Below, one piece after another: positions 53,241 to 57,589 of a stretch of DNA of 64,000 nucleotides. The number at the start of each line of letters is the position of its first letter. The stretch's first letter is position 1. Source of the DNA: Halomonas sp. M20. Lineage in GTDB: Bacteria; Pseudomonadota; Gammaproteobacteria; Pseudomonadales; Halomonadaceae. The notes beneath the pieces are model-generated. The model was given only the letters and a program-made list of their open reading frames with translations. It made no database searches and was not told the origin of the DNA. The stretch is from NCBI RefSeq assembly GCF_020622265.1, contig NZ_JACNMQ010000004.1, positions 62,001-126,000 of the forward strand, in the 5' to 3' direction. Position numbers and translations under genes: made by a program.

Positions 53241-53304
53241 AGCAAAGTGAACCACTCTTTCACCCATCACTTGACCCATATAAGCCATCGTTCTACGCTT
53301 GCGA

Positions 53305-53416
53305 GCATTCCTGGGGGAGTCCAAGCGGACTGAGATTCCGCTGTCAGACGTATGAACATGGCAGCGGTAACCCTTCGAACCTGATCCGGATCATGCCGGC
53401 GAAGGGAAGGAAGTGC
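53305..53416 (+). ncRNA. TPP riboswitch (THI element) upstream of the thiV-like gene
   Basis: The conserved blocks are in order: GGGGGAGTCC with GACTGAGA (53313-53335), then ACCCTTCGAACCTGATC and ATGCCGGCGAAGGGAAG (53368-53409). GCATTCCT and AGGAAGTGC close the P1 stem. The variable P3 region between them includes CCGCTGTCAG. About 77 bp separate it from the Shine-Dalgarno region, with a small hairpin (ACGCC/GGCGT) but no T-run, so control of translation is more likely than transcription termination. Confidence 0.93.
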
Positions 53417-53505
53417 CTCTCTGTCACGCTTCTACCCCAACGCGATTACGCCTTCATCACGGCGTTCGGCATCCTGCCGGACATTTTCACGTAATGGAGA
53501 GAGTA

Positions 53506-54948
53506 ATGCTAACGACTGCTCATGCGCTCTGGTGGCTCATCGCCTTTGCGACACTGTTCGCCCTGCCCGGCATGCTCTACGCCAGGCGCCATCACGAAAG
53601 CCTCGAAGACTTCATCATCGCCCGCAACAGTCAGAGTGCCACTGCCACGGTACTGACCCTGATGGCGTCCACCCTGGGCACCTGGATTCTATTCGGCCCG
53701 GCCCAGGCCGCTACCTGGGGCGGCTTGGCAGCGATCACCGGCTATGCGCTAGGCTCGCTGGCCCCGCGCTTGGTGATGATTCCGCTAGGCCGACGCCTAC
53801 GCGAGTTTTCTCCCGAAGGACACTCGCTGACCGAGTTCGTGATGAGTCGCTACGGCCGTCCCATGTACGCTTTCACCCTGCTCATCATGCTGTTTTATCT
53901 GTTCATTTCCCTGGCTGCCGGCATCACCGCCATCGCCATGATGGTGGAGCTGGTCGCACCGGTGCCGCTATGGGCCACCAGCGTGATCGTGATGAGCGCT
54001 ACCCTGCTTTATACCCTCTACGGCGGACTGCGCGCCTCGATCTTCACCGACAAGGTGCAGATGATCGTGATCCTGCCGCTGCTGTTTGTACTCATCGTCT
54101 TCGGCTGGCAGGCCGCCGGCGGCATCACACCCACCCTCGAAGGGCTTGCAACCAATGCGCCGCAACTTCTGAACATCGCCGATCTGGGAGGGCTAAAGGC
54201 TGGTATCACCTTCTTTCTGGCAGTGCTCTTGACTGGGCTTTTCTATCAGGGCAACTGGCAGCGGGTATATGCCGCGCGGAATAACCGGGCTGTGCGATTG
54301 GGCTTCTTTCTTGGTGGGCTCTTGAGCACGCCGATGATCTTCATGATGGGGCTGTTCGGTCTAGCCTTTGTTGGTTTGGGGTTGCCCGGAGACGGCTCCG
54401 TAGCCCTGTTCAGCGTACTGCTCGATAACGCGCCAGGCTGGTTCGCCATCGGCCTGATCTTTCTGGGACTTGCTCTGGTGATGAGCAGCGCGGACACCAG
54501 CATCAGCGCGGTGTCCAGCATGATCGCCGTGGACGGCGGGCGGCTGATGCCCCGTGCCAGCGACGCTCATCTGATGCGCCTGTCCCGTTGGCTGATGCTG
54601 GCAATCGCGGTTCCCGTCATCTTCGTGGCGGCTCAAGGCTACAGCGTGCTCTACTTGTTCCTGCTGGCGGATCTGTTCTGCTGCGCGGCGGCGTTCCCGG
54701 TCTTCTTCGGGCTGTTCAATCGCCGCTTCAATGGTCGCGCTGCGGTGCTGGCAACCGCTGGTGGCCTGGTTGCAGGGCTCTTCATGTTCCCCGCGCCAGG
54801 CGATGCCCTGAACACCCTGATGGAGTCCTTCCTGCTCGCCACTTTCGTGCCGGTGATCGTGGCCTTGGCCATGCTCGTCCTCCTGCCAGCCAAGGAGCGA
54901 TTTGATTTCGCGATCTTGAAGTCCGGCGTGCGGCGCTTTGAGGGTTAA
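53506..54948 (+). CDS. SSS-family symporter under TPP riboswitch control (ThiV-like)
   Basis: The 480-residue sodium symporter has about thirteen helices. ESLEDFIIARNSQSATATVL near residue 30, STLGTWILFGPAQAATWGGL near 55 and MSSADTSISAVSSMIAVDGG near 340 are SSS features. I choose ATG 53506, since GGAGAGAG lies just upstream; another ATG at 53494 would add four residues. The TPP riboswitch immediately upstream points to uptake of thiamine or a thiamine precursor such as the pyrimidine or thiazole moiety, as proposed for ThiV proteins of the same superfamily. Its stop codon overlaps that of the convergent monooxygenase gene (TTAA). Confidence 0.88.
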   Translation: MLTTAHALWWLIAFATLFALPGMLYARRHHESLEDFIIARNSQSATATVLTLMASTLGTWILFGPAQAATWGGLAAITGYALGSLAPRLVMIPLGRRLREFSPEGHSLTEFVMSRYGRPMYAFTLLIMLFYLFISLAAGITAIAMMVELVAPVPLWATSVIVMSATLLYTLYGGLRASIFTDKVQMIVILPLLFVLIVFGWQAAGGITPTLEGLATNAPQLLNIADLGGLKAGITFFLAVLLTGLFYQGNWQRVYAARNNRAVRLGFFLGGLLSTPMIFMMGLFGLAFVGLGLPGDGSVALFSVLLDNAPGWFAIGLIFLGLALVMSSADTSISAVSSMIAVDGGRLMPRASDAHLMRLSRWLMLAIAVPVIFVAAQGYSVLYLFLLADLFCCAAAFPVFFGLFNRRFNGRAAVLATAGGLVAGLFMFPAPGDALNTLMESFLLATFVPVIVALAMLVLLPAKERFDFAILKSGVRRFEG

Positions 54949-56249
54949 GGGCGCTCGAGCCCGAAATGCCCTCGCAGCGTGGTGGTGTCGTACGCTTCCC
55001 GGAACAGGCCGCGGCGCTGTAGTTCCGGGATGACATGTTCGACGAAATCCTCGATGCCGGAAGGCAGCGACGGCGGCATCAGGTTGAAACCATCCGCGCC
55101 CCCTTCCCCGAACCAGCGTTCCATCTCGTCGGCGATGCTTTCCGGCGTGCCGATCATGGTGCAGTGGCCGCCCCCTGCGGCCAGCCGACCTAAAAGCTCC
55201 CGAAGCGTCGGCTGCTCGGTTTCGATGATGCGCAAGATCGTGGAGTAACGCCCCTGAGGGCCGGTGAACTCGGCAAGCGGCGGCAGTTCCGGCACCGGCG
55301 CGTCCAGTTCCCAACCGCTGCAGTCCTGTTCGATGAACAGCCCCAATTGGCGCAGTGACGCCGCCACCGGCAGGCACTCATCCAGGGCGCGCTGCTTGGC
55401 CTTGGCCTCTTCCATAGTGGAACCCACATAGGTGACGAGACCGGGCAGGATGGGCACCGGAGCACTGCGCCCCGCTGCTTTCACCCGAGCCTTGATGTCC
55501 CGGTAGTAGTCCTGGGCGGTGGGTAGATCGTAGGCGACGGCGTAAATGGCTTCTGCATAGCGGGCGGCGAGATCGCGCCCCTGCTCCGAGGCGCCAGCCT
55601 GTATCAATACCGGATGTCCCTGGGGCGGACGCGAGAGATTCAGCGGCCCATCGACGAGAAAGTGCTCGCCCTGGTGATGGATCTTGCGCACCTTGCCCGG
55701 ATCGGCATAGCGTCCTTTGCGGTCGCGCTCGATGGCGTCGTCCGCCCAGCTATCCCAGAGCGCCAGCACCGCCTGCACGAACTCCTCGGCTCGGGCGTAG
55801 CGCTCGGCGTGAGAAGGCATGGAAACGTAGTTATGATTGCGCGCCTCAACGTCGAACATCGAGGTCACCACGTTCCAGCCCACGCGGCCGCCGGAAATAT
55901 GATCCAGCGATCCTACCAGCCGTGCGGCATGAAACGGCGTATAGAAGGTGCTCGAAATGGTACTGATCAGACCAATGTGCTGGGTCGCCCGACTCATGGC
56001 AGAAAGTGCCGTCAGCGGTTCGAGATGCCAGTGAAAGCCATCCTCCACGCTGCCGGCACTCATGCCATCGGCGAAGAACACCGCGTCCAGCTTGCCTCGC
56101 TCGGCGATCTGGGCGAGGGATTCGTAATAGGCGATATCCGTCAGCCGCTCCGCTGCGGAATCCGGGTGCCGCCAGGCCGCCCGATGATGGCCGCAGCCCA
56201 TGATGAACAGGTTGATGTGCAGTTTTTCGGTCTCGTCGCGCTTTTTCAT
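54945..56249 (-). CDS. SnaA/DszA/NtaA-type flavin-dependent monooxygenase (LLM class), thiamine-regulated
   Basis: The 434-residue luciferase-like enzyme belongs to the NtaA/SnaA/DszA branch: ERGKLDAVFFADGMSAG near 50, STISSTFYTPFHAARLVGSL near 98, GGRVGWNVVTSMFDVEARN near 120 and HPVLIQAGASEQGRDLAARY near 215. Such enzymes use FMNH2 from a separate reductase to oxidise sulfur or nitrogen compounds. It is translationally coupled (TGATG) to the SDR gene behind a TPP riboswitch, so expression should rise when TPP is low. No flavin reductase gene is adjacent. The substrate is unknown; a thiazole or pyrimidine derivative is an inference from regulation. Confidence 0.87.
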   Translation of the reverse strand: MKKRDETEKLHINLFIMGCGHHRAAWRHPDSAAERLTDIAYYESLAQIAERGKLDAVFFADGMSAGSVEDGFHWHLEPLTALSAMSRATQHIGLISTISSTFYTPFHAARLVGSLDHISGGRVGWNVVTSMFDVEARNHNYVSMPSHAERYARAEEFVQAVLALWDSWADDAIERDRKGRYADPGKVRKIHHQGEHFLVDGPLNLSRPPQGHPVLIQAGASEQGRDLAARYAEAIYAVAYDLPTAQDYYRDIKARVKAAGRSAPVPILPGLVTYVGSTMEEAKAKQRALDECLPVAASLRQLGLFIEQDCSGWELDAPVPELPPLAEFTGPQGRYSTILRIIETEQPTLRELLGRLAAGGGHCTMIGTPESIADEMERWFGEGGADGFNLMPPSLPSGIEDFVEHVIPELQRRGLFREAYDTTTLRGHFGLERP

Positions 56250-57025
56250 CAGCCCTTCACCAGTCCGCCGTCCACGATCAGATTCTGGCCGGTAACGGCT
56301 CGCGCCCAGGGCGAGGCGAAGAACAGCGCCGCATCGGCGAACTCTTCTGGCGTGGTGACGCGACGCAGCGGGGTATTTTGCGCGATGAGATCGAACACCG
56401 ATTCCGGCGTGGCGCTGGAGGCATCCGTGGTACGCAAAAGTCCGCCGGAGATCATGTTCACGGTGATGTTGTCCGGACCCAGATCCTGGGACAACGTGCG
56501 GGTCAAGGACAGCAGCGCCGCCTTGCCGGCGGTATAATCGTGATAAGGCACGACCGGGTTCTGAAACAGATTGGTGCCGATATTGAGGATGCGCCCACCG
56601 CCCTGTTCCCGCATGCCGGGCAGTGCTGCTTGAACGGTATTCAGCGCACCGCGATTCACGCCTTCGAGCTGCTGGCTCATCTGCGCCCAGCTGAGGCTAT
56701 CCGCCTGGGGTCTAGCCTCGCCATTGAAGGAGAAACTCGGCAGCGCATTGTTCACCACGGTGGTGATTGGCGCGCCGAAGTGGCTGTGGGCGCTATCGAA
56801 AAGCGTCTTGACTGCTTCTGGATCGGTTACATCCGCCTGAACCGCCAGGGCACGCTCAGGGGCTTCACTGGCCAGCGCGTTTGCAGCCTCGCCGCTGTTC
56901 AGATAGTTGATCACTACTCGCGCACCCTGGCCAAGAAATGCACGCGACAGATGCGCGCCAAGCCCGCGGGCGCCACCGGTGATCAGAACGATCTGAGTAT
57001 CGATTGCAGGAGAGAAATTGGACAT
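56249..57025 (-). CDS. Short-chain dehydrogenase/reductase under TPP riboswitch control
   Basis: The SDR has about 258 residues. The cofactor motif is TGGARGLG (about 16-23), NNA appears as VVNNALPSF, and the active-site Y-x-x-x-K is in YHDYTAGKAALL. The residue 13 positions before the tyrosine, usually serine, is threonine (LNIGTNLF). ATG at 57025 is preceded by GAGGAG; an in-frame ATG at 57046 is less well placed. It is the first gene after a TPP riboswitch and is coupled to the monooxygenase. FabG-like annotation would be misleading, as no fatty-acid gene is near; an alcohol or ketone in thiamine precursor salvage is more consistent. Confidence 0.87.
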   Translation of the reverse strand: MSNFSPAIDTQIVLITGGARGLGAHLSRAFLGQGARVVINYLNSGEAANALASEAPERALAVQADVTDPEAVKTLFDSAHSHFGAPITTVVNNALPSFSFNGEARPQADSLSWAQMSQQLEGVNRGALNTVQAALPGMREQGGGRILNIGTNLFQNPVVPYHDYTAGKAALLSLTRTLSQDLGPDNITVNMISGGLLRTTDASSATPESVFDLIAQNTPLRRVTTPEEFADAALFFASPWARAVTGQNLIVDGGLVKG

Positions 57026-57072
57026 GAAAAAGGCTCCTCGCGGCAATAAAAGGGTGCCGCCATGGAGCCAGC

Positions 57073-57148
57073 TGACATCCCTTCGCCAGCATTAACTGGA
57101 TCAGGTTCAACGGGTATTGTCTCAGCGGCAACGACCGCACCCCGTGTC
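57073..57148 (-). ncRNA. TPP riboswitch (THI element) upstream of the SDR-monooxygenase operon
   Basis: On the minus strand the blocks read ACACGGGGTGCGG, GCTGAGACAATACCCG, TTGAACCTGATCCAGTTAA and TGCTGGCGAAGGGATGTC, a textbook THI element closed by GACA/TGTC as P1. It ends about 48 bp before the SDR start codon, leaving room for a sequestrator of GAGGAG but no visible T-run terminator. Confidence 0.95.
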
Positions 57149-57301
57149 GAACCCACACCATAGCGCATTGTCACGAACCAGAACAGCCGCGACCTTTCAG
57201 GAATGCTCGAGGAAAACCATGACGCTGAAAGGCAACGAAGAACGCGGCAAGTCATGCGTTTGCTGCATAGACGCAAGAAAAGGAAACTGGAGGGATAAAA
57301 G

Positions 57302-57377
57302 TGGCGTCCCATAGGGGGTTCGAACCCCTGTTACCGCCGTGAAAGGGCGGTGTCCTGGACCACTAGACGAATGGGAC
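57302..57377 (-). tRNA. tRNA-Glu (TTC), copy 1
   Basis: The minus strand starts GTCCCATTCGTCTAGTGG, has anticodon loop CTTTCAC (anticodon TTC), T arm GGGGTTCGAACCCC, and ends ATGGGACGCCA with CCA encoded. The 76-nt gene is repeated 212 bp away at 57514. Confidence 0.96.
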
Positions 57378-57401
57378 GTAACGGTAGGAAAGTTGGATAT
57401 T

Positions 57402-57476
57402 TGGAGCGGGAAACGAGATTCGAACTCGCGACCCTCGCCTTGGCAAGGCGATGCTCTACCACTGAGCTATTCCCGC
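57402..57476 (-). tRNA. tRNA-Gly (GCC)
   Basis: The minus strand starts GCGGGAATAGCTCAGTGG, has anticodon loop TTGCCAA (anticodon GCC), and ends TTCCCGCTCCA, with T as discriminator and CCA encoded. It lies between the two tRNA-Glu genes; the three are probably one transcript. Confidence 0.96.
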
Positions 57477-57513
57477 ATTGACTCCAGCTTTTCAAACACC
57501 TGCGAGAAGGAAG

Positions 57514-57589
57514 TGGCGTCCCATAGGGGGTTCGAACCCCTGTTACCGCCGTGAAAGGGCGGTGTCCTGGACCACTAGACGAATGGGAC
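57514..57589 (-). tRNA. tRNA-Glu (TTC), copy 2
   Basis: The sequence is identical to the copy at 57302-57377 as far as I can read, with anticodon TTC and encoded CCA. It is the first gene of the Glu-Gly-Glu cluster in the direction of transcription. Confidence 0.96.

What the first reader, a model, noticed from the sequence alone, without database searches (positions are those of the whole stretch)
53305..57148. Convergent module of three genes between two facing TPP riboswitches
Two clear THI elements (53305-53416 plus, 57073-57148 minus) face inward. One leads to an SSS symporter, the other to an SDR and a SnaA/DszA-type flavin monooxygenase. The whole segment therefore appears dedicated to thiamine limitation, yet it contains no classical thi gene. 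Import of a precursor followed by redox tailoring would be a salvage route not in the standard pathway. Comparative studies have, to my memory, listed a thiamine-regulated SDR and ThiV, but the pairing with an LLM monooxygenase in one closed module is what deserves attention.
Basis: partly seen in the sequence, partly recalled or inferred. Interest (0 to 1): 0.85.

Follow-up and report, generated by a model that had tools for sequence, protein, structure and literature searches.

The report
Riboswitch-controlled vitamin B1 precursor salvage cassette
Three neighbouring genes in a Halomonas-like bacterium (a sodium-driven importer, a flavin monooxygenase and a small dehydrogenase) sit behind two genuine vitamin-B1-sensing riboswitches, and because the same enzyme pair recurs behind such riboswitches in very different bacteria it probably rebuilds a vitamin B1 building block by a route that has not been shown by experiment as far as I could find.

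Summary
Both TPP riboswitches pass Rfam's cut-off (71.8 and 70.3 bits), and the genes are an SSS symporter, an NtaA/DszA-type FMN monooxygenase (LLM) and a PRK08642-type SDR. In the family, 30 of 275 genomes carry all three genes in the convergent order. Among the 80 best named LLM relatives (Gamma-, Beta-, Alphaproteobacteria, Actinobacteria), 73 have the SDR next to it and 79 have a TPP riboswitch in the module. The facing arrangement was seen only in Halomonadaceae: elsewhere the symporter is divergent or not within 6 kb. The LLMs split, fully supported, from seven relatives without riboswitches. In Pseudarthrobacter the pair follows thiM-thiE; in two Alphaproteobacteria the SDR closes thiM-thiE-thiD. 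ThiC is missing in 28 of 76 distinct carriers examined, while ThiG is nearly always kept (as in ThiC-less non-carriers). Best reading: a TPP-repressed, oxygen-dependent salvage route, most likely for the pyrimidine half (LLM cleaves a 5-CH2-X bond to the aldehyde, SDR reduces it to HMP, SSS imports). Thiamine involvement is well supported; substrate and chemistry are inferred. No paper listed in my searches of the held library describes it.

The parts
53303..53424 (+). TPP riboswitch aptamer (THI element) heading the symporter gene
   Evidence: Rfam RF00059, 70.3 bits, cut-off 54.3; found at the same place in 29 of 30 family loci that hold the symporter, own included
53425..53505 (+). leader between aptamer and symporter start; candidate expression platform that hides the GGAGAG ribosome-binding site
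   Evidence: fold pairs the AUGGAGAGAG stretch, but z is only -1.65; weak
53506..54948 (+). SSS-family sodium:solute symporter, ThiV-like (480 aa)
   Evidence: PF00474 67.3 bits; PutP and PanF models score far below their cut-offs; relatives at about 41-42% identity over about half the length lie beside TenA-family genes in three haloarchaeal plasmid records (one seen in full)
54945..56249 (-). NtaA/SnaA/DszA-type FMN-dependent monooxygenase, LLM class (434 aa)
   Evidence: TIGR03860 531 bits; nearest solved chains MoxC, YtnJ and Nitrilotriacetate monooxygenase, E about 2e-91; member of the TPP-associated group
56249..57025 (-). short-chain dehydrogenase/reductase, PRK08642 (NF006393) type (258 aa); its stop overlaps the LLM start
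   Evidence: NF006393 425.9 bits, cut-off 292; Y164xxxK168 invariant and T151 at the usual catalytic Ser place in 10 of 10 aligned relatives
57026..57060 (-). candidate expression platform: GGCTCC/GGAGCC hairpin that hides the ribosome-binding site of the SDR (its 5' arm lies at the edge of the Rfam match)
   Evidence: fold z -3.05 over 57015-57154; L041 has GACTCC/GGAGTC, a change on both sides that keeps the pair; not seen in the more distant half of the 14 leaders
57061..57154 (-). TPP riboswitch aptamer (THI element) heading the SDR-LLM operon
   Evidence: Rfam RF00059, 71.8 bits, cut-off 54.3; found in 30 of 30 family loci with all three genes

Best explanation
The three genes are a thiamine-precursor salvage cassette that is switched on when TPP is scarce. 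At high TPP the two aptamers fold and shut off the SDR-LLM operon and the symporter, probably by hiding the ribosome-binding sites. When TPP is low, the ThiV-like symporter brings in a pyrimidine-type breakdown product or conjugate of thiamine. The LLM monooxygenase, with FMNH2 from a general flavin reductase, oxidises the carbon between the pyrimidine ring and a departing N or S group, and the product collapses to 4-amino-2-methylpyrimidine-5-carbaldehyde. The SDR reduces this aldehyde with NAD(P)H to HMP, which ThiD and ThiE take into thiamine phosphate. Shown by sequence: riboswitches, gene identities, conservation, linkage to thi genes, frequent absence of ThiC. Inferred: regulation in the cell, the substrate, the aldehyde intermediate, the direction of the SDR reaction, the transported molecule. 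My sub-estimates: thiamine-precursor salvage of some kind about 0.85; pyrimidine rather than thiazole side about 0.65 given that; the cleavage-then-reduction chemistry about 0.6 given both.
For: Riboswitches over cut-off. Nested distribution in the family: SDR in 33, LLM in 31, SSS in 30 of 275 genomes, SSS within LLM within SDR (Fisher for LLM/SSS 2.8e-39, relatedness not corrected). TPP within the module in 79 of 80 named loci. One operon TPP>thiM-thiE-SDR-LLM in Pseudarthrobacter. ThiG gene directly downstream of SDR-LLM in Marinobacter ELB17 (L091). SDR as last gene of TPP>thiM-thiE-thiD-SDR in Neorhizobium and Gemmobacter. SDR (296.5 bits, just over the cut-off of 292) as last gene of TPP>thiW-permease-LuxE-LuxC-SDR in Niallia, where LuxE/LuxC would turn an acid into an aldehyde, so an aldehyde reductase is what is missing. 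ThiC absent in 9 of 31 LLM+ family genomes against 20 of 244 LLM- (p 0.002), and in 28 of 76 distinct LLM+ genomes examined; ThiG found in 79 of 80 searched handles. ThiV of SAR11 is the likely HMP importer behind a TPP riboswitch (PMC11452348, abstract and passages). CmoJ, described there as a homologue of YxeK and DszA, cleaves a benzyl C-S bond to benzaldehyde (PMC10863075, abstract and passages), a chemical precedent for a pyrimidinylmethyl substrate.
Against: The window's own genome has ThiC, as do 48 of 76 carriers (one of these, G060, only by weak pieces), so the route is not a strict replacement. The 20 LLM-/ThiC- family genomes also keep ThiG (20 of 20 at E 1e-3, 19 convincingly), so ThiG retention is not special to carriers. 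SDR next to thiOSGF (L197), ThiG next to the LLM (L091) and ThiW, cited as thiazole-specific (PMC5627462 passage), point to the thiazole side as readily. 66 of 74 carriers searched have TenA, which already converts aminopyrimidine to HMP; no non-carrier control was run for TenA. Ten of 12 NF006393 loci in the order of G688 have no TPP element, and neither do two Caballeronia loci, so the SDR family is not thiamine-only. Seven of 80 LLM loci lack an adjacent SDR. I saw no flavin reductase in the window module.
Confidence: 0.4

Rival explanations
1. Thiazole-side salvage: the SDR reduces 4-methylthiazole acetaldehyde to hydroxyethylthiazole (HET), and the LLM frees or repairs the thiazole from an oxidised or side-chain-modified thiamine; the symporter imports that compound.
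For: SDR beside thiM (HET kinase) in two Alphaproteobacteria and Pseudarthrobacter; SDR after thiO-thiS-thiG-thiF-like genes in L197; ThiG directly after the LLM in L091; ThiW in the Niallia operon.
Against: Carriers keep ThiG in 79 of 80 searched handles and lose ThiC more often than non-carriers; the symporter resembles ThiV, taken as an HMP importer.
Confidence: 0.18
2. Damage control: the LLM and SDR break down or repair oxidised or toxic thiamine analogues (oxythiamine, oxothiamine, methoxy-pyrimidines) that compete with the vitamin when it is scarce.
For: A Nudix gene directly follows the LLM in Carnimonas, and Nudix enzymes for oxidised thiamine diphosphates are known (PMC5627462 passage). 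Flavin monooxygenases of this type often act on unwanted compounds (recalled).
Against: The Nudix gene passes no curated cut-off and matches no thiamine-specific model, and that locus, alone of the 80, has no TPP element. Repression by TPP and an importer in front suit acquisition better than detoxification (inference).
Confidence: 0.13
3. Oxygen-dependent new synthesis: LLM and SDR make HMP from a molecule that is not a thiamine fragment, as a partial stand-in for ThiC.
For: ThiC missing in 28 of 76 carriers examined; three ThiC-less carriers also lack TenA while keeping ThiG (G210, G654, G658).
Against: 48 of 76 carriers keep ThiC; an importer accompanies the pair in Gamma- and Betaproteobacteria; HMP itself may simply be imported.
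Confidence: 0.08
4. The riboswitches control genes unrelated to thiamine chemistry (for example nitrogen or sulfur scavenging by a generic NtaA-type enzyme).
For: Named members of this enzyme family act on nitrilotriacetate, EDTA, dibenzothiophene compounds and S-alkyl cysteine (molecule names).
Against: TPP association of one LLM group in 79 of 80 named loci across several phyla, with 0 of 7 fetched outgroup loci positive, and operons shared with thi genes.
Confidence: 0.05

Closest known systems
ThiV (SSS symporter of SAR11; relatives in haloarchaea)
   Same: SSS family, TPP riboswitch upstream, distant relatives beside tenA; SAR11 ThiV is the likely HMP importer
   Different: sequence relation to SAR11 ThiV not tested; here paired with LLM and SDR
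CmoJ/YtnJ, YxeK, DszA, NtaA (TIGR03860 FMN monooxygenases)
   Same: family model and nearest solved structures; members cleave C-S or C-N bonds (C-S to an aldehyde for CmoJ; C-N for NtaA recalled)
   Different: split from seven outgroup rows with 100/100 support and with diagnostic residues such as M131, Y236, F328, P331, G333, Y335, G360; TPP control; 45% identity or less to the family's other LLMs and about 48-51% to three plasmid relatives without TPP elements
TPP-regulated thiM-thiE-thiD salvage operons
   Same: SDR of the same NCBIfam family as last gene
   Different: those two loci show no LLM next to the SDR; the window module lacks the kinases
TenA/YlmB aminopyrimidine salvage
   Same: supplies HMP from thiamine breakdown products, TenA often under TPP control
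   Different: hydrolytic, not oxidative (recalled); TenA coexists with the module in 66 of 74 carriers searched

Membership tests
TPP riboswitch (RF00059) | covariance score over gathering cut-off | tested here: met
   71.8 and 70.3 bits against 54.3
TPP riboswitch (RF00059) | TPP binding and control of expression | not testable with these tools
   needs probing or reporter assays; only a candidate platform was seen
NtaA/SnaA/DszA FMN monooxygenases (TIGR03860) | score over curated cut-off across the full length | tested here: met
   531 bits against 279.7, residues 13-428
NtaA/SnaA/DszA FMN monooxygenases (TIGR03860) | same substrate as a characterised member (NTA, EDTA, DBT sulfone, S-alkyl cysteine) | not testable with these tools
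   the separate group and its changed residues suggest another substrate, no more
PRK08642 SDR (NF006393) | score over curated cut-off | tested here: met
   425.9 bits against 292
PRK08642 SDR (NF006393) | 3-oxoacyl-ACP reductase activity, as the model is named | not testable with these tools
   gene context speaks against a fatty-acid role at these loci; the usual catalytic Ser place is Thr in 10 of 10
ThiV thiamine-precursor symporters | SSS family membership | tested here: met
   PF00474 67.3 bits
ThiV thiamine-precursor symporters | TPP control or neighbourhood of thi genes | tested here: met
   TPP upstream in 29 of 30 family loci; three haloarchaeal relatives beside TenA-family genes
ThiV thiamine-precursor symporters | closer sequence kinship to ThiV than to PutP/PanF; HMP transport | not tested
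   no reference ThiV sequence was fetched; PutP and PanF models score well below cut-off
TPP-regulated thiamine salvage operon | contains a kinase or thiaminase of the known pathway | tested here: not met
   no thi gene between the riboswitches; a relative, L127, does contain thiM-thiE

The most novel reading that the evidence does not exclude
A second, oxygen-dependent route to the thiamine pyrimidine exists in several bacterial phyla: a TPP-riboswitch-controlled group of flavin monooxygenases with its SDR makes HMP from a compound that neither ThiC nor TenA can use, and lets bacteria dispense with ThiC.
Probability: 0.25. Interest if true: 0.88.

Novelty: new variant of a known kind. Interest (0 to 1): 0.7.

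Why it matters
Many bacteria cannot make the pyrimidine half of vitamin B1 and live on fragments shed by others. A widespread enzyme pair that turns an unknown fragment into a usable one would add a missing step to the vitamin B1 cycle, would help to explain how ThiC-less Rhodococcus, Kocuria or Halomonas may live, and would correct the uninformative or misleading database names 'LLM class oxidoreductase' and '3-oxoacyl-ACP reductase' for a large set of genes.

Tried and rejected
Considered and set aside: (a) chance or artefact: rejected by conservation. (b) The convergent arrangement as the functional unit: rejected, it was seen only in Halomonadaceae. (c) A strict replacement for ThiC: rejected, 48 of 76 carriers examined have ThiC. 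(d) ThiG retention as proof of the pyrimidine side: weakened, because LLM-/ThiC- genomes keep ThiG too. (e) A common third enzyme or flavin reductase downstream of the LLM: ten chosen downstream neighbours gave no common family (DUF4185, Nudix, tRNA synthetase, ThiG, siderophore-interacting-type reductase, another SDR and CitMHS once each, three without a match). (f) A defence role: no PADLOC match for the three proteins. (g) The idea that 'order of G688' would sample Bacilli: the fetched loci have GC 0.61-0.75, and the record named Sporosarcina beigongshangi (L164/L208) has GC 0.66-0.67 and sits among Actinobacteria in the tree, so it is not counted here as a member of Bacilli. (h) No structure prediction or fold search was run. 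(i) The name oarX for a thiamine-regulated SDR is recalled from memory; one search showed no occurrence of it in the 20 papers listed, and the 2002 JBC paper is not held.

Literature searches for prior description: (held open-licence library only, listings mostly cut at 20 or fewer papers; RegPrecise not searchable). PMC3766115, PMC2211319, PMC10881298, PMC10470507, PMC5627462 and PMC6478431 were seen as found passages only: the word 'monooxygenase', asked in all six, occurs in none; 'dehydrogenase', asked in four, occurs in none. Supplementary tables were not seen.
Full report
1. Check of the observation. An Rfam scan of the whole window found two TPP riboswitches, at 57154-57061 (minus, 71.8 bits) and 53303-53424 (plus, 70.3 bits), both over the cut-off of 54.3. 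The genes between them are an SSS symporter (53506-54948, plus), an NtaA/DszA-type FMN monooxygenase of the luciferase-like (LLM) class (54945-56249, minus) and a short-chain dehydrogenase (56249-57025, minus). SDR stop and LLM start overlap as ATGA, LLM and SSS stops overlap by 4 nt.

2. Riboswitch anatomy. The SDR leader folds with z -3.05 and pairs a GGCUCC just after the aptamer with GGAGCC, the ribosome-binding site before the ATG. Among 14 aligned leaders, L041 carries GACTCC/GGAGTC, a change on both sides that keeps the pair. Leaders of the more distant half do not show the same arms. The symporter leader also pairs its GGAGAG site, but its fold is not clearly better than shuffles (z -1.65). 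Control at translation is therefore likely for the SDR operon and only a guess for the symporter. No regulation was measured.

3. The family. A search of 275 genomes of the family found LLM orthologs at 68-100% identity in 31 genomes (own included), then a gap to 45%. The symporter at 67% or more is in 30 genomes, all of them LLM carriers, and the SDR at 69% or more in 33: SSS within LLM within SDR. Fisher's test for LLM and SSS gives 2.8e-39, not corrected for relatedness. In 30 of 31 LLM loci all three genes stand in the convergent order, with 59 of 60 possible TPP aptamers found by a model built here from 20 TPP elements, two of them from the window; the missing one is on the symporter side of L063, which Rfam also does not find at its cut-off. 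Carnimonas (L065, the same as named locus L135) has SDR and LLM without symporter or riboswitch. Two further genomes with the SDR (G199, G244) have TPP>SDR without LLM or symporter nearby (the G244 contig is only 4.9 kb long). The two flanking genes that I tracked are not shared throughout: the upstream gene of the window (UP1) was found in 3 and MsrB in 6 of the 31 loci, own included (fetched stretches were 12.6-19 kb). The cassette is patchy even within the genus: 4 of 14 genomes.

4. Beyond the family. A search of 369 class genomes at E 1e-120 found only the window's own. TPP elements were scored with the model (107 matches; 79 of 80 loci have one). By script 64 of 80 have one within 400 nt upstream of the SDR (or LLM) start; by inspection four more count (L144 and L157, where the script's gap rule missed the SDR; L163, where the aptamer runs up to the LLM; L127, where it heads thiM-thiE-SDR-LLM), giving 68. 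In 11 Achromobacter loci only the divergent symporter has a TPP element; L135 has none. SDR adjacent: 71 by script, 73 with L144 and L157; missing in six Achromobacter loci and L163. The symporter is in 38 of 80 loci, 31 divergent and 7 convergent; the seven are all Halomonadaceae and all among the eight repeats. Of the 31 divergent loci 20 have a TPP element on each side. By script 36 of 38 symporters have their own TPP; L098 is a 37th by inspection (aptamer and gene start overlap); L120 (= L063) has none. Rfam itself confirmed the TPP elements in the subsets checked.

5. Other records. TPP>SDR-LLM also occurs in Pseudochrobactrum algeriensis (69.4 bits), Rhodococcus sp. DMU1 (65.7) and Mesobacillus foraminis (82.0), while three plasmid loci with LLM relatives at 48-51% have none. 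For the SDR, 5 of 7 fetched plasmid loci have a TPP element: Neorhizobium and Gemmobacter as thiM-thiE-thiD-SDR, an unannotated Rhizobium record with the same spacing, Exiguobacterium with the SDR alone, and Niallia taxi with two tandem TPP elements before thiW, a nucleobase-type permease, LuxE-like, LuxC-like and SDR genes (this SDR scores 296.5 bits, just over the 292 cut-off). Two Caballeronia loci have none. In the order of G688, 12 of 149 genomes have an SDR over the NF006393 cut-off; 2 of these 12 loci have a TPP element within the fetched 17-18 kb: L208, which is the named locus L164, and L197, where it heads thiO-thiS-thiG-thiF-like genes and the SDR (gene names from my reading of the ORFs; TPP 63.5 bits by Rfam). 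In Marinobacter ELB17 (L091) a ThiG gene (354.6 bits) follows the LLM after about 100 nt. So the SDR family is often, not always, tied to thiamine.

6. Phylogeny of the LLM. In a maximum-likelihood tree of 58 chosen sequences the 51 from module loci (50 with a TPP element; L065 without) are split from seven relatives without riboswitches (100/100, branch 0.8; the tree is rooted at the midpoint for drawing only). Sixteen positions are fixed or nearly so in the 51 and absent from the seven, among them M131, Y236, Y274, F328, P331, G333, Y335 and G360. Seven outgroup rows are few, three of them (L071, L072, L078) have long branches and two (L069, L070) are near-copies, so the list is a guide only.

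7. Which half of thiamine? ThiC is missing in 9 of 31 LLM+ family genomes and in 20 of 244 LLM- (p 0.002; nine of these 29 genomes were not printed and were identified as the gaps in the list of matches). All nine carriers are at least 99% complete; four of the 20 non-carriers are under 90%. G060, counted as having ThiC, shows only weak pieces. Among 50 of the 80 named genomes 20 lack ThiC (completeness not told). Five genomes are in both sets, judged from equal coordinates and contig lengths, so 28 of 76 distinct carriers examined lack it. ThiG was found in 79 of 80 searched handles, absent only in Pseudochrobactrum kiredjianiae. As a control, the 20 LLM-/ThiC- family genomes also match ThiG (one only weakly), so loss of ThiC with retention of ThiG is common in the family, and the support for the pyrimidine side rests on the excess of ThiC loss in carriers, not corrected for relatedness. 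TenA is present in 66 of 74 carriers (no non-carrier control); G210, G654 and G658 have neither ThiC nor TenA but keep ThiG and the module. Against this, SDR or LLM contexts with thiM, ThiG, thiOSGF and ThiW leave the thiazole side open.

8. Mechanism. The nearest solved relatives are MoxC, YtnJ and Nitrilotriacetate monooxygenase. CmoJ, described as a homologue of YxeK and DszA, cleaves the C-S bond of a benzyl sulfoxide to benzaldehyde, with the aldehyde oxygen from O2 (PMC10863075, abstract and passages). The pyrimidine of thiamine is a benzyl-like group, so the same chemistry would give its 5-aldehyde, and an SDR could reduce it to HMP. The Niallia operon offers a second way to the same kind of aldehyde, from an acid by LuxE and LuxC, again ending in an SDR of this family. 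SAR11 ThiV, a TPP-controlled SSS symporter, is the likely HMP importer (PMC11452348, abstract and passages); Kazanov et al. list thiV among TPP-regulated genes (PMC2211319, passage). The SDR keeps YxxxK, with Thr at the usual Ser place, in 10 of 10 aligned relatives. These are analogies; no substrate has been shown.

9. Novelty. The held open-licence library was searched, and no listed paper describes a TPP-controlled LLM monooxygenase or its pairing with this SDR, judged from titles, abstracts and the passages named; databases such as RegPrecise, supplementary tables and most subscription papers could not be searched, so prior listing is possible. I rate it a new variant of a known kind: a TPP-controlled salvage regulon whose enzymes are unassigned.

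Noticed in passing
L085:1170-6762: Niallia taxi megaplasmid: two tandem TPP riboswitches before thiW, xanthine/uracil-type permease, LuxE-like, LuxC-like and PRK08642-type SDR genes; looks like reduction of a carboxylic acid vitamer to an alcohol.
   Followed up: partly
L197:5768-9832: TPP riboswitch before thiO-thiS-thiG-thiF-like genes with the SDR as last gene in an unnamed high-GC genome.
   Followed up: partly
L091:7411-8211: ThiG gene about 100 nt downstream of SDR-LLM in Marinobacter sp. ELB17, whose genome lacks ThiC.
   Followed up: no
L004:1501-1650: Sub-threshold TPP match (33.6 bits, about 150 nt) upstream of thiM-thiE in the window's own genome; probably a real element with a long extra arm.
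   Followed up: no
L052:2788-3021: HEARO RNA (RF02033, 115.5 bits) near the cassette in one genome of the family.
   Followed up: no
L164 / L208: The record named Sporosarcina beigongshangi has GC 0.66-0.67 here and its LLM sits among Actinobacteria; the name or assembly is doubtful.
   Followed up: partly
L126:3816-5105: The Oligella LLM relative is read in two pieces with an in-frame stop; the gene looks interrupted.
   Followed up: no
window 57305-57589: Three tRNA genes on the minus strand lie just upstream of the SDR-side riboswitch, a possible insertion site for the cassette; not tested.
   Followed up: no
G060 (family genome): ThiC is matched only by two weak pieces (best E 2.6e-29) in a carrier of the cassette, as if ThiC were decaying.
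   Followed up: no
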